From NCBI GenBank assembly GCA_021604665.1, contig BQJK01000001.1:558001-622000 (forward strand): DNA of 64,000 nt, given 5' to 3'. This DNA comes from Rhodomicrobium sp. (GTDB taxonomy: Bacteria > Pseudomonadota > Alphaproteobacteria > Rhizobiales > HXMU1428-3). Shown piece by piece: positions 15,353 through 20,666 of the stretch (position 1 is its first letter; the number at the start of each line of letters is the position of its first letter). The notes beneath the pieces were generated by a model. The model made no database searches. It was not told the origin of the DNA and saw only the letters and a program-made list of their open reading frames with translations. Both the position numbers and the translations under genes were made by a program.

Positions 15353-16585
15353 TTACACATCATCCAGTGAGATGTAATCAACCACTGATCCCGCTTCAGC
15401 ATAAGCAGCCCTGACAGGGCGAATGAGTAACGCATTGGCTGAAGCAAATATAGATTGTAAGCTGCTATCCTGATCATCAAACGCCCTGATCTCAACTTGT
15501 CCAAAACGAGATATATTGGTTTTAGCGCGCATATAATGTTGCCGTGCTCCATTGGTTGGCACATTATTTAACAAACGCGCTGATCTAATCGGCAAATCAA
15601 CTTGGTTGGCGCCCATCATTTGCCGCAACAGCGGTACAACAAACAGTAATGTACATACAAGCGCAGAAACCGGATTACCAGGTACGCCAATCACTTGCTG
15701 TTGTTTTAAGCGCCCAACCATTAGCGGTTTTCCTGGGCGCATAGCTATTCGCCAAAAATTAAGCACCATCCCCGCCCGGCTCAGCGCCTCTTGCACAAGG
15801 TCATGGTCACCAACAGAGGCGCCGCCAATGGTTACCAGAATATCATAATCAGCAGCCCGCTTTATCTGTTTTGAGAGATCATCCATATCATCCCTGGCGA
15901 TGCCTATAATATCTGCCTCGCCGCCTGCCAACTCAATCAGTGCTTTCATCCCCGAGGGAATGGAAGAAACAATAGCCCCTTCAAAAAGCTCAGCACCCGG
16001 CAGAACTAACTCATCACCAGTTGCAAGAATAGCAACGCGGGGCCGGGCACGCACTGGCACCATTTCTATATTCATGGCAGCAAGCAGCGTTAGATGGCGG
16101 TAGTTAAGCCGAGACCCGGCAGAAATCAAAAGGTCGTTCTCTTGAAAGTCATAACCTGAAGGGCGGATATAATTTGCCTCACTATCATACTGCAGAACTT
16201 TCACTGTGGTAGCACCACCAGTTATATGATCCGCATTCTGATCCGTTTCGCAATCCTCTTGCAGTACAATCCGGTCAGCCCCATCAGGCAGGGCAGCGCC
16301 AGTAAATATACGCACAGCCTCACCCCTGCCAAGCCGGCCTTGAAATGGATGACCCGCAGATGAACTGCCAATAATTTTAAGGGGGGTCCCTATAGGGTGA
16401 AGGTCAGCGCCCTTAACCGCATAGCCATCCATTGCCGATGAGTGGAATGGTGGTTGCGTGACCTTGGCTGTTATATCTGCAGAAACATAGCAACCAGCAG
16501 CGCTCTGAAGCGGCGCAGCGCTAGTCTTTGTAACAGGGCATTCAGCCAGCAGCCGCTGCCGCGCTGTTTCAACATCCAACATCAT
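15353..16585 (-). CDS. moeA: Molybdopterin molybdenumtransferase MoeA
   Basis: MoeA inserts molybdenum into adenylylated molybdopterin, the last step of molybdenum cofactor synthesis. The 410 residues show the usual domain order. The molybdopterin-binding domain has ILATGDELV near residue 185, and VTIGGASVGDHDLV and PGKPLMVG follow it. The C-terminal domain contains NALLIRP. Start: the tandem ATGs at 16585/16582 lie 10 bases after the moaC stop, so it is translated with the TrpC-MoaC fusion. An in-frame start at 16651 would overlap that gene and add an unrelated tail. Confidence 0.95.
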   Translation of the reverse strand: MMLDVETARQRLLAECPVTKTSAAPLQSAAGCYVSADITAKVTQPPFHSSAMDGYAVKGADLHPIGTPLKIIGSSSAGHPFQGRLGRGEAVRIFTGAALPDGADRIVLQEDCETDQNADHITGGATTVKVLQYDSEANYIRPSGYDFQENDLLISAGSRLNYRHLTLLAAMNIEMVPVRARPRVAILATGDELVLPGAELFEGAIVSSIPSGMKALIELAGGEADIIGIARDDMDDLSKQIKRAADYDILVTIGGASVGDHDLVQEALSRAGMVLNFWRIAMRPGKPLMVGRLKQQQVIGVPGNPVSALVCTLLFVVPLLRQMMGANQVDLPIRSARLLNNVPTNGARQHYMRAKTNISRFGQVEIRAFDDQDSSLQSIFASANALLIRPVRAAYAEAGSVVDYISLDDV

Positions 16586-16595
16586 CCTACCACGA

Positions 16596-18281
16596 TCACT
16601 CCGCTGCGTCAGGCGCGCGGTAAACCCCGGATTTGCCTCCAGTTTTTTCAAGCAGTCGTATACCAGAAAAGCTCATGCCCTTATCAATAGCTTTGGCCAT
16701 ATCATAAATGGTCAGACAGGCCACAGAAACAGCCGTTAAGGCTTCCATTTCAACACCGGTTTTCCCATCAACCTTAACCCTCGCCGCAACACGGATGCCG
16801 GTCGTTGGATGGCTAAACGGAGTGAAATCAACATCAACGCCAGTGAGTTGCAGCGGATGACATAACGGAATGAGATCAGCTGTTTTCTTAGCTGCCATTA
16901 TGCCGGCAAGCCGAGCAGCAGAGAGCACATCACCCTTTTTCATGGCATTTTGCTGAATCTGCGCCAGCGTTTCAGGTTGCATGGTCACATAGCCCTCAGC
17001 AACAGCAATCCGCTGGCTGCTATCCTTCGCTGAAATATCAACCATATGCGCTGCACCAGCTTCATTAACATGGCTCAATTTCCCAGTAGATTTTTCATCT
17101 TCAGCAGTTTTTGCGTCACCTGCTACCTTATTATCTTTTGAGGAGATCGCATCAGCAATTGAGGTCTTTATTTTATTACCGGCCCCGGCAAGCGGCGGTT
17201 CACCAGCAAGGCTATCAGTACCTTTCTCAACCGTGCTATCACGGCGGGCGCCGGCCTCTGCCTCAGTCGGCTCGCCAACAGTTGCCCCAATCATCGCGCC
17301 AAGCTCTTGTACAGCAGCCTGAAAATCATCCTCACGCCCACTATTTCCTTCGCTCTTGGCGGCGCCCAATTCCTCGGCATGTGGTTCTGCATTAGCTTGC
17401 GAAGCAGGGTGGGGGTCCTCGGCATCATCACCGCCATCAGCTTCAGCCCGCGCCGGTTGATCTGCCGGTTGGCGCGGAGCCTCCAAAGGGGCAATGCCAA
17501 GCAAGCGCCGTGTTGCACTTTCAACATCATCCTGCCGCATCAAACACTCACCAACGAGATATGTCTGCACACCAACATGGGAAAGCCTTGTTAAATCCTC
17601 ATGTTTAAAAATGCCGCTTTCACTCACTACAATACGATCATGGGGAATAAGCGGTGCTAACCCTTCCGTCACTTCAAGCTTGATCTCAAATGTTTGCAGA
17701 TTGCGATTGTTAATACCAATTAAAACAGAATCGAGCTGCAGGGCCCGCTCAAGTTCCTGCCGGTTATGCACCTCAATGAGAACATCCATGCCCCATTCGC
17801 GGGCAACATTGGTCAAGGTTTTGGCCATGCTATCATCCACAGCGGCCATGATAACCAAGATGCAATCCGCCCCCCAGGCGCGGGCTTCCACCACCTGATA
17901 AGGGTCAATCATAAAGTCCTTGCGCAGCACAGGCAGGCTAGAGGCGCTGCGAACCTCTTTCAGGTAAATAGGGTGGCCTTGAAAAAACGGCACATCAGTC
18001 AAAACAGAAATACAAGCAGCCCCGCCATTTTCATAAGCAACAGCAAGCGCCGCCGGGTCAAAATTCTCCCGGATCAAACCTTTTGAAGGGCTGGCTTTTT
18101 TTATTTCAGCGATCAGTGCCGCGCGCCCGCTTTGGTGGGTGTTATAAATATTTTTAACAAAGCCGCGCGGGGTTGAGGCCATTCTCGCCTGCACTTCAAT
18201 TTCCGAAACCGGCAAATTAATTTTGGCGTTTTCAACTTCCCGCGTTTTATGAGCAATGATCCGGTCGAGCATATTTTGCAT
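16596..18281 (-). CDS. trpC-moaC: Fused indole-3-glycerol-phosphate synthase (TrpC) and cyclic pyranopterin monophosphate synthase (MoaC)
   Basis: One uninterrupted frame of 561 residues carries two enzymes of different pathways. Residues 1-263 are a full TrpC barrel (E59, K61 in [11 protein letters not shown]121 in [10 protein letters not shown]170 in LIEVHN, N191-N194 in NNRN, E221-S-G), which closes the indole ring in tryptophan synthesis. Residues 401-557 are a full MoaC domain (H475 in PLCHPL, E511/E513 in VEMEAL, D527 and K530 in TIYDMAK), which makes cyclic pyranopterin monophosphate for molybdenum cofactor. Residues 264-400 are a low-complexity linker rich in Ala, Glu, Asp, Gly and Ser. 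The start at 18281 has AAGGAA upstream; 18302 and 18272 are alternatives. In related bacteria trpC, moaC and moeA are adjacent separate genes, so stop-codon loss is the likely origin. A missed stop from a sequencing or assembly error cannot be ruled out. Confidence 0.92.
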
Positions 18282-18382
18282 GACTGTTTCCTTAAATTCC
18301 ATCCCTCACCGAAAAATAAGCCCTTATCTAAAAAGCAAAATAATCGGCAAGACCCTCAAAACAAGGGATGGCAGCGTTAATT

Positions 18383-19393
18383 TTAATTCGTAATCTCAAT
18401 CAGTTTAAGCAGTGCATCTTTGGCATGGCCTTCATCAATGGCCTTGGCCGCAAGCTCAACTCCAGCCTTCAGGTCACTAACCTTACCACTAACCAATATG
18501 GAGGCCCCAGCATTTAGCAGCACTATATCACGAAAGGCACCGCGCTCCCCATCAAGCACGGTGCGGATCGCAGCAGCATTCTGTGCCGCTTCCCCGCCCT
18601 TTAGCATCTCAGTAGTGGCAACTTGTAGCCCAACATCGCCAGGCTCAACTGTAAAAGTCGTTATCTCGCCATTCTCAAGTGCCGCGACATGGGTAACGCC
18701 AGTGGTTGTTAACTCATCCAGCCCATCTTCACCATGCACAACCCATAAACGTTCAGAGCCAAGGTTGCGCAAAACTTCAGCCAGGGGAACAAGCCAGGCT
18801 TTATCAAAAACCCCAATCACCTGCCGTTTGGTTCCGGCCGGGTTTGCAAGCGGGCCTAAGAGATTAAAAATTGTGCGCACACCAAGGGCCACACGCGCTG
18901 GGCCAACATGTTTCATGGCAGAGTGATGCGCTGGTGCAAACATAAACCCTATGCCCGCCTCATCAATGCAGCGGGTCACCAGCTCTGGTGGCACATCGAG
19001 GTTTACCCCAAGCGCTTGCAACACATCAGCTGAGCCGGATTTGGAAGAGATTGACTTATTACCGTGCTTGGCAACCGGCACGCCAGCACCCGCCACCACA
19101 AAAGCGGCGCAGGTTGAAATGTTATATGTGCCAGAAGAATCGCCGCCAGTGCCGCATGTATCAACAGAGCCTTCAGGCGCTTTAACACCTGTGGCCTTGC
19201 CCCGCATCACTTCTGCCGCGCCGGTGATCTCATCAACCGTTTCGCCCCGCATGCGCAGCGCCATGAGAAAGCCGCCAATTTGCGCGCCATCAGCCTCACC
19301 AGACATCAGCAATTCAAACGCCTCAGCCGCTTCAGACCGGCTTAGCGTTTCGCCTTCAGCTACAATCTTGATATAGTCCTGAATGCTTGCCAT
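18383..19393 (-). CDS. trpD: Anthranilate phosphoribosyltransferase TrpD
   Basis: TrpD joins anthranilate to phosphoribosyl pyrophosphate, the second step from chorismate to tryptophan. The 336 residues contain the family motifs [17 protein letters not shown] (near 80), [15 protein letters not shown] (near 107) and the [13 protein letters not shown] segment (near 173). ATG 19393 is preceded by GGGGATAG. It lies between trpG and the trpC-moaC fusion in pathway order, with gaps of 129 and about 100 bases. Confidence 0.97.
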
Positions 19394-19522: not shown

Positions 19523-20134
19523 TTATGCTGTTGCGGCCTCAGATTTAGAGGCAGGTTTTAACGGCACCCCCGCAAGTTTGAGAAAATTCCCCAATATTTT
19601 ATGGCCGCAATCAGAGGCAATGCTCTCCGGATGAAACTGAACCCCGTGGATCTCATACTCTTTATGTGTAAGCCCCATAATCAGCCCATCTTCACTTCGT
19701 GCTGTCACCTCGAGGCAGTCAGGTAGCCCATCCTCTTCAACGATTAGGGAGTGATAGCGCGTCGCGGTGAAAGGGGAGGGCAGGTCTTTAAAAATCCCGG
19801 TACCCTGATGAGAAATTTGAGAGGTTTTGCCATGCATAAGCTTCGGCGCATTGGTCACAACGCCGCCAAATACCTGGCCAATTGTCTGATGACCAAGGCA
19901 AACCCCAAATAGCGGAATTTTACCAGCCGCTTTTTCAACCAGGTCAAGGCAAATACCAGCTTCAGTTGGTGAGCACGGCCCCGGTGAAAGCACAATAGCC
20001 TGGGGCTTAGCCTCAATCACAGCTTCGGCGGTAATTTTATCATTACGGATGACATCACAGGTAACCCCAAGTTCCCCAAAATAGTGAACAAGGTTATAGG
20101 TGAAACTGTCATAATTATCGATCAAGGTAATCAT
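19523..20134 (-). CDS. trpG: Anthranilate synthase component II (glutamine amidotransferase) TrpG
   Basis: TrpG supplies ammonia from glutamine to TrpE for anthranilate formation. The 203 residues form a class I glutamine amidotransferase with the triad C79 (FGVCLGHQ), H168 and E170 (VQFHPES). The ATG at 20134 is used; the TTG one codon upstream is ignored. Its first 20 bases overlap the end of the sixA-like gene, which indicates cotranscription and probably coupled translation. Confidence 0.97.
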
Positions 20135-20666
20135 CAAGCGAGTATTCCTGAGAAGAGAGACGCTTCGGTGTCATATAACGATATAGTTTTCCGCCCGAAG
20201 GGGCAACATCAGACCATGCCGCAGCGTTAAAAGTCACGTGAGCAAAGGCAGAGGTTGGAAATTTGCTATAAAAAGAGCCATCGGTAACGGCTTCATCCGC
20301 GCTTATCAGTGATTTTAAAAGGATGTGCAAGCCCGGATTATGTCCAATAAGCAGCAAGGTCTTAACATCAGCCTCAGAGGTCCGAATAATCTGTAACAAC
20401 TCCGCAGAGCTCGCAAGATAAAGCCGTTGTAATTTCCGGCTGGCCCCAACCTCAACACCCGCATGTTTCAGTAGTTTAAAAGTCGATCGTGTTCGCTGCG
20501 CGCTGGAAATAAGCGCTAAATCAGCGCCATAACCATTATGCTTCATCCATCTGGCCATTTGTGGAACAGCCTTACGTCCGCGCTTATTCAAGGGGCGATG
20601 AAAATCATCCAGGCTGGTATCGCTCCAGCTGGATTTGGCATGCCGCATAAGCAATAGGTTGAGCAT
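20115..20666 (-). CDS. SixA-like histidine phosphatase (phosphoglycerate mutase superfamily)
   Basis: The 183 residues start with [10 protein letters not shown], the RHG-type phosphatase motif (R8, H9), and carry the second catalytic His in LLIGHNPG (H109). This places it with SixA-type phosphohistidine phosphatases, which in E. coli act on the phosphorelay protein ArcB or the nitrogen PTS. The substrate here is unknown. It lies between trpE and trpG and overlaps trpG by 20 bases, an unusual place for this family. It may simply be a passenger in the operon; a role in tryptophan synthesis is not suggested by the sequence. Confidence 0.8.

What the first reader, a model, noticed from the sequence alone, without database searches (positions are those of the whole stretch)
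16596..18281. TrpC-MoaC fusion joining tryptophan and molybdenum cofactor synthesis in one polypeptide
Both enzymes keep every active-site residue I can identify (TrpC E59, K61, K121, E170; MoaC H475, E511, E513, D527, K530), so both halves are probably working. They are joined by about 135 low-complexity acidic residues (264-400). In related bacteria trpC, moaC and moeA are adjacent separate genes, so the fusion probably arose by losing the trpC stop and the intervening sequence becoming coding. I know of no description of this fusion. It could tie the two enzymes in stoichiometry or change MoaC hexamer assembly.
Basis: partly seen in the sequence, partly recalled or inferred. Interest (0 to 1): 0.75.

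Follow-up and report, generated by a model that had tools for sequence, protein, structure and literature searches.

The report
Recurrent TrpC-MoaC enzyme gene fusion
In this bacterium and its close relatives a tryptophan-making enzyme and a molybdenum-cofactor enzyme are encoded as one protein, joined by a loose tether that holds one short, strongly conserved segment, and similar fusions turn up in several other bacterial lineages.

Summary
Minus strand 16596-18302 is one open frame with a complete IGPS (TrpC) domain, about 138 acidic low-complexity residues and a complete MoaC domain. It gives the only whole-protein match and the only MoaC match in the genome. It is not an assembly error: 8 of 8 genomes of the genus carry the fusion frame; in one, G005, the contig ends inside MoaC. 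No internal start is shared: the codon where MoaC would start is TTG in the window but no start codon in the 7 of 7 relatives. Two things were not in the finding. First, the tether holds a 14-residue amphipathic segment, D[DN]F[QE]xA[VI]xELGA[ML]I, with 8 of 14 columns invariant in 8 species and none in the rest of the tether. Second, the fusion recurs: nearly linkerless in 8 of 10 genomes of the Acuticoccus family, with short tethers in G158, G769, G486 and perhaps G479. The four clear groups as one clade are rejected (p-AU 0.00012). Enzyme function is inferred. The paper searches made found no description. Most likely two working enzymes tethered after a stop between closely spaced genes was lost; what the conserved segment binds is unknown.

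The parts
16596..18302 (-). trpC-moaC fusion gene (568 aa from the first ATG; probable start ATG 18279-18281, 561 aa)
   Evidence: start by conservation in relatives
17502..18269 (-). IGPS (TrpC) domain, residues 12-267
   Evidence: Pfam PF00218 E 1.1e-94; AlphaFold pLDDT mostly above 90 here
17082..17495 (-). acidic, low-complexity linker, residues 270-407
   Evidence: no Pfam match up to E 10; pLDDT below 50 for residues 290-331 and 336-406; net charge -15
17289..17330 (-). conserved amphipathic segment in the linker, residues 325-338, [14 protein letters not shown]
   Evidence: 8 of 14 columns invariant in 8 of 8 species; pN 0.03-0.11 against 0.28-0.71 in the flanks over nine species pairs; once per genome in 8 of 8; helix 327-339 predicted at low confidence
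16635..17045 (-). MoaC domain, residues 420-556
   Evidence: Pfam PF01967 E 2.7e-56; aligns to E. coli MoaC 4pyd/1ekr
18383..19393 (-). trpD, directly upstream
   Evidence: TIGR01245 410.4 bits against cut-off 199.05
15353..16585 (-). moeA, directly downstream (ATG about 16583-16585 read by eye; longest ORF begins at TTG 16651)
   Evidence: Pfam MoeA_N, MoCF_biosynth, MoeA_C

Best explanation
One bifunctional polypeptide: indole-3-glycerol-phosphate synthase (tryptophan pathway) and cyclic pyranopterin monophosphate synthase (molybdenum cofactor pathway), joined by a flexible acidic tether. Shown: one frame, both domains complete, conserved in the genus, a segment of the tether under purifying selection, similar fusions in other lineages. 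Inferred: in the ancestral operon trpC and moaC lie a few bases apart, so loss of one stop joins them easily. MoaC still builds its hexamer (recalled for the family) and carries six tethered IGPS domains. The conserved segment is a docking helix, for a partner or for one of the two domains. No chemical link between the two reactions is known to me, so the fusion probably acts on dosage and assembly, not on channelling.
For: Both domains full length; one whole-protein match and one MoaC match in the genome. 8 of 8 genus genomes (G005 cut by its contig end). A trpD hit in 8 of 8 genus loci and a moeA hit in 7 of 8, the exception being the cut-short G005 (order and strand not tested there). Other steps of both pathways are present: the MoaA C-terminal family in 7 of 8 genomes, TrpA in 7 of 8. 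No shared internal start. Segment conservation and amphipathy: hydrophobic moment 0.51-0.60 in the 8 sequences; shuffles of one of them have mean 0.24, 0.85% as high as it. Recurrence. AlphaFold folds both domains confidently in the window protein and in the nearly linkerless Acuticoccus form.
Against: No protein-level or expression data. The helix is predicted with pLDDT below 50 except residues 332-335; the tool's answer says nothing on domain contacts, so docking was neither seen nor excluded. In the window a TTG sits exactly at the usual MoaC start, and 4 of the 7 relatives have an ATG 4-9 codons upstream of it, so some internal initiation cannot be excluded. The fusions with short or no linker outside the genus have no room for the segment, so it is not needed for fusion as such.
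Confidence: 0.7

Rival explanations
1. The polypeptide is made as one chain but is cut in the linker after translation, so the cell holds separate TrpC and MoaC; the conserved segment is a protease recognition site.
For: Long, acidic linker, predicted unstructured, with one constrained short segment.
Against: No protease or precedent was looked for or identified; the fusions outside the genus have short or no linkers, with nothing comparable to cut. Amphipathy suits docking better.
Confidence: 0.13
2. MoaC is also, or mainly, made by internal translation initiation inside the fused frame, so that two functional proteins persist.
For: In the window TTG lies exactly at the usual MoaC start; G003, G002, G001 and G005 have an ATG 4, 9, 7 and 7 codons upstream of it; G003, G001 and G007 have a GTG three codons after it. 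G769 has a GTG in its short linker.
Against: No position is shared by all; G004 has no start codon from 30 codons before to 4 after, and G006 only a GTG 28 codons before. In 6 of 8 Acuticoccus-family fusions no start codon stands in the stretch printed before the conserved Met inside MoaC; one has a GTG two codons before that Met, one a TTG in the last residues of TrpC. G158 and G486 have none before that Met.
Confidence: 0.1
3. A neutral fusion: stop loss between crowded genes was tolerated and fixed, with no benefit; the linker is drift, and the segment only covers an exposed surface. (Overlaps the best explanation on what the protein is; it differs on why it stays.)
For: No link between the two reactions known to me; separate genes lie 13 nt apart at the median, so joining is mutationally easy; the linker flanks evolve fast.
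Against: Retention in 8 of 8 and in 8 of 10 genomes of two groups and the purifying selection on the segment suggest a function of at least that part.
Confidence: 0.35
4. Sequencing or assembly artefact.
Against: The genomes of 8 of 8 species agree.
Confidence: 0.01

Closest known systems
TrpC-TrpF bifunctional enzyme (NCBIfam NF006945, PRK09427; PDB 1pii, taken from recall as its structure)
   Same: IGPS at the N-terminus of a bifunctional protein; matched over the IGPS part
   Different: Partner is another tryptophan enzyme, TrpF; here it is MoaC of another pathway. Score 279.8 against cut-off 380.
TrpC/TrpB fusion (NCBIfam NF010375, PRK13802)
   Same: IGPS N-terminal in a fusion
   Different: Partner is tryptophan synthase beta; 183.5 against cut-off 1386
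MoaC fusions: MoaC/MoaB (NF002947), MoaC/MOSC (NF011069), MoaC/MobA (NF011070); archaeal MoaC-MoaC, MoaC-MoaE and MoaC-MoaB (PMC11237513, passages)
   Same: MoaC in a two-domain protein
   Different: Partners belong to molybdenum biology and, in the three NCBIfam models, follow MoaC; here MoaC is C-terminal to an unrelated enzyme. All three score below cut-off.
Adjacent trpC and moaC genes in alphaproteobacteria and in the Sargasso Sea metagenome (PMC2395257, passages)
   Same: Same neighbours; the paper reports moaC next to and after trpC in 100% of 25 cases
   Different: Separate genes; the paper's novel fusions are trpE-PLPDE_IV and trpF-truA, and the passages seen name no trpC-moaC fusion

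Membership tests
Indole-3-glycerol phosphate synthase (PF00218) | Full-length profile match over the cut-off | tested here: met
   E 1.1e-94, 1-254 of 254; NF001370 411.3 bits against cut-off 348
Indole-3-glycerol phosphate synthase (PF00218) | Catalytic residues (recalled) present | tested here: met
   E66, K68, K128, E177, N198, E228, S229 in 568-aa numbering (positions); which residues are catalytic is recalled
Indole-3-glycerol phosphate synthase (PF00218) | Enzyme activity | not testable with these tools
   needs an assay
MoaC (PF01967, TIGR00581) | Full-length match over the cut-off | tested here: met
   PF01967 1-136 of 136, E 2.7e-56; TIGR00581 205.4 bits against 141.5
MoaC (PF01967, TIGR00581) | Catalytic residues (recalled) present | tested here: met
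   K456, H482, E518, E520, D534, K537 (positions); the same letters in the E. coli MoaC alignment
MoaC (PF01967, TIGR00581) | Hexamer | not testable with these tools
   only single chains were modelled
TrpC-TrpF bifunctional enzyme | TrpF domain after IGPS | tested here: not met
   Only IGPS and MoaC found by Pfam; NF006945 matched 3-258 of 461 positions, below cut-off
Known MoaC fusions (MoaB, MOSC, MobA) | Second molybdenum-related domain | tested here: not met
   All three models below cut-off and matched over their MoaC part only
TrpC-MoaC fusion group (this report) | Both domains in one frame without a stop | tested here: met

The most novel reading that the evidence does not exclude
TrpC and MoaC need to be together: the repeated fusions, and a docking helix kept in the tether of this genus, mark an unrecognised physical or regulatory coupling of tryptophan and molybdenum cofactor synthesis, with the helix recruiting a third protein to a MoaC-hexamer scaffold that carries IGPS.
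Probability: 0.15. Interest if true: 0.78.

Novelty: new variant of a known kind. Interest (0 to 1): 0.5.

Why it matters
Fusions are usually read as a sign of linked functions. Here the same two enzymes of unrelated pathways are fused in several lineages, so either fusion is cheap wherever two genes sit a few bases apart, a useful warning for fusion-based function prediction, or a real link between the pathways has been missed. The conserved segment gives a concrete handle to test which. The occurrence of fused and separate forms within one family, and apparently within one genus, g90, makes natural comparisons possible.

Tried and rejected
Assembly error: rejected, 8 of 8 genus genomes agree. 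Linker as a known domain: no Pfam match up to E 10; one PDB match at E 2.2, to haemoglobin, taken as chance. The conserved segment elsewhere: the pattern A[VI]xELGA-hydrophobic-I was found once per genome in 8 of 8 genus genomes, its backward-read control 0 in each, and 8 of 8 places lie inside the fusion matches. A script looking for the segment before MoaC or after TrpC in 129 loci with separate genes flagged none.

Single ancestral fusion: one clade is rejected for groups A, B, C and E together (p-AU 0.00012) and for A with C (0.013); it is NOT rejected for A with B (0.233); for B with E the constrained tree was even better (p 0.574), so B and E may share an origin or a transfer (quick trees, LG+G4). 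One gain with several losses is not formally excluded. Group D (G479) was left out of those tests as a long branch; it is ambiguous, because an ATG stands at its MoaC start. That A and B are separate rests on taxonomy: group B's family also holds 2 of 10 genomes with separate genes.

Limits: long-linker fusions outside the genus could have been missed. Searches listed only part of their matches, and searches use a nearly linkerless query that shows only short-linker fusions as one match. The table column open_frame_aa misled: equal values for G036, G047, G023 and G024 were not fusions when read directly. The tree used 101 selected rows, 7 of the 8 window-genus genomes among them. Alignment A1 for structure used 66 of 141 TrpC and 66 of 119 MoaC rows drawn at random plus 8 fusions; A2 used 67 rows picked by hand. 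pS values are near saturation, the segment has only 15 codons, and the flanking linker aligns poorly, which inflates its pN.

Full report
WHAT IS THERE. The minus strand of the window holds one open frame, 16596-18302 (568 aa). Pfam finds a complete IGPS domain at residues 12-267 and a complete MoaC domain at 420-556, with no stop between. NCBIfam finds TrpC models over cut-off (NF001370, 411.3 bits against 348) and MoaC models over cut-off (TIGR00581, 205.4 against 141.5); the bifunctional TrpC or MoaC models it lists stay below theirs, and none of the 20 families listed is a TrpC-MoaC model. The genome has one match to the whole protein and one to the MoaC family, so this gene is the only candidate found for both enzymes. 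Upstream are trpD, trpG, a small histidine-phosphatase-like gene and trpE; downstream are moeA and lexA.

IT IS REAL. A search of the 8 held genomes of the genus gives the fusion in all 8. In seven, TrpC and MoaC lie in one frame without a stop. In G005 the contig ends inside MoaC, after the linker and the first MoaC residues; the TGA that searches count for it is the codon directly before its open frame. Identity to the window protein over the matches, linker included, is 65-69% (74% for the MoaC piece of G007). trpD is found in 8 of 8 of these loci and moeA in 7 of 8, the miss being G005. The MoaA C-terminal family (7 of 8 genomes; G003, 78% complete, lacks it) and TrpA (7 of 8; not found in G005) show both pathways present.

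ONE PROTEIN OR TWO? In the window the codon at the position where MoaC proteins usually start (KLSHVN; usual start recalled) is TTG, a possible start. In the seven relatives it is CTT, CTC, CTA, CTT, TTA, CTC and CTT. Other in-frame start codons near it differ: an ATG 4-9 codons upstream in G003, G002, G001 and G005, a GTG 28 codons upstream in G006, only a GTG three codons downstream in G007, and none from -30 to +4 in G004. No internal start is shared by the genus, though single species could use one.

THE TETHER. It is 95-139 residues long in the 8 species, with net charge -9 to -19. Only one stretch is conserved: window residues 325-338, D[DN]F[QE]xA[VI]xELGA[ML]I, with 8 of 14 columns invariant in 8 species and 0 invariant in the rest of 270-408. 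Over nine species pairs, non-synonymous differences per site are 0.03-0.11 in this stretch (15 codons), 0.28-0.71 in the flanking linker, 0.03-0.15 in TrpC and 0.03-0.19 in MoaC. Synonymous differences are near saturation (0.49 or more in all regions), so this is selection on the peptide; the flanks align poorly, which inflates their values. As a helix it would be amphipathic: moment 0.51-0.60, shuffles of one version mean 0.24, 0.85% as high. AlphaFold puts a helix at 327-339 but with low confidence, and the rest of the linker is without structure; the two enzyme domains have pLDDT mostly above 90. A pattern for the core occurs exactly once per genome in 8 of 8 genomes, inside the fusion gene each time, control 0. 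It was not flagged in 129 separate trpC/moaC loci.

OTHER FUSIONS. A named genome, Acuticoccus mangrovi, has TrpC and MoaC in one frame with essentially no linker (both Pfam domains full length). In its family as the tool draws it, 8 of 10 genomes have it, with 1-3 residues between the two matched stretches, and 2 of 10 have separate genes. Of the 34, 31 hold at least one stop, i.e. separate neighbours in the same frame, and three hold none: G769 and G486 (one genus, 7-11 residues between the matched domains) and G479, which has an ATG at the MoaC start and stays open. In 297 genomes of the order (list again capped), joined matches without a stop are 8 genomes of the Acuticoccus genus, the same places as, and G158 (8 residues between the domains); the window genus (8) is fused but shows as two matches there because of its long linker. 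G276, of G158's genus, shows no joined match. AlphaFold gives both domains at high confidence in the Acuticoccus form.

HOW MANY ORIGINS? On a tree of concatenated TrpC and MoaC domains (101 rows, quick method), fused and separate rows need 5 changes, and starred branches force at least 3. Holding groups A (window genus), B (Acuticoccus), C (G769, G486) and E (G158) together is rejected (p-AU 0.00012), as is A with C (0.013). A with B is not rejected by the tree (0.233), and B with E is not (0.574). If splitting a fused gene again is rare, at least two origins are secure and three to five are likely. The nearest separate relatives of the window genus in the tree (L010, L011, L027, L052) have 5-31 nt between the trpC stop and the MoaC domain. 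In 129 separate loci the median is 13 nt, at most 60 nt in 118 of 129. So loss of a stop, or a small deletion, can fuse them, but it cannot make the long linker, which was probably gained in addition.

HOW IT PROBABLY WORKS. Shown: one frame, intact domains, a constrained segment, recurrence. Inferred: two working enzymes on one chain; equal amounts of both; MoaC's hexamer (recalled for the family) carrying six flexible IGPS arms; the conserved segment docking to a partner or to one of the domains. I know of no chemical link between the two reactions, so channelling is unlikely. Cleavage after translation, internal initiation in some species and a neutral origin remain open.

WHAT IS KNOWN. 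PMC2395257 (passages read) reports moaC next to and after trpC in 100% of 25 Sargasso Sea cases, and novel fusions trpE-PLPDE_IV and trpF-truA; the passages seen name no trpC-moaC fusion. PMC11237513 (passages read) lists archaeal MoaC fusions with MoaC, MoaE and MoaB, and trpF-trpC and trpF-trpB fusions. Searches for trpC with moaC and fusion (one paper, a Streptomyces genome, listing only), for spelled fusion names (none), for moaC, trpC, lexA and moeA (none), for tryptophan gene fusions in general (10 papers, one of them opened, the rest listing only), for MoaC fusion terms (2 papers, one opened), for enzyme names (none), for Acuticoccus with trpC (none) and for IGPS with MoaC (2 papers on cancer phosphoproteomics, listing only) found no description. 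The library holds only open-licence papers, so this is not proof of absence; protein databases could not be searched for architecture.

VERDICT. A confirmed, conserved and recurrent fusion, apparently undescribed, whose most interesting part is the conserved segment in the tether. As a kind of thing it is a new combination of two well-known domains.

Noticed in passing
window 20115-20666 (-): A SixA-like histidine phosphatase gene (PF00300 over cut-off, TIGR00249 below cut-off) lies between trpE and trpG and overlaps the mechanical trpG ORF by 23 nt.
   Followed up: no
L002, L003, L004, L005 linkers (G006, G003, G002, G004): These four share two further linker segments, DENxFxEELxQ and IKIxDVxLLGD, upstream of the genus-wide segment.
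   Followed up: no
L008 / L109 (G007): The fusion frame runs 16 residues past the end of the MoaC match, with a different tail.
   Followed up: no
G158 and G276 (one genus, g90): One genome has the short-linker fusion and the other shows no joined match, so a recent change may be datable there.
   Followed up: partly
G072, G167, G372 (small genomes of the order): Genomes of 1.4-1.6 Mb, 99-100% complete, without a match to the fusion query.
   Followed up: no
L164 (G479): TrpC and MoaC share a frame, but an ATG stands at the MoaC start; long branch in the tree; fusion unclear.
   Followed up: partly
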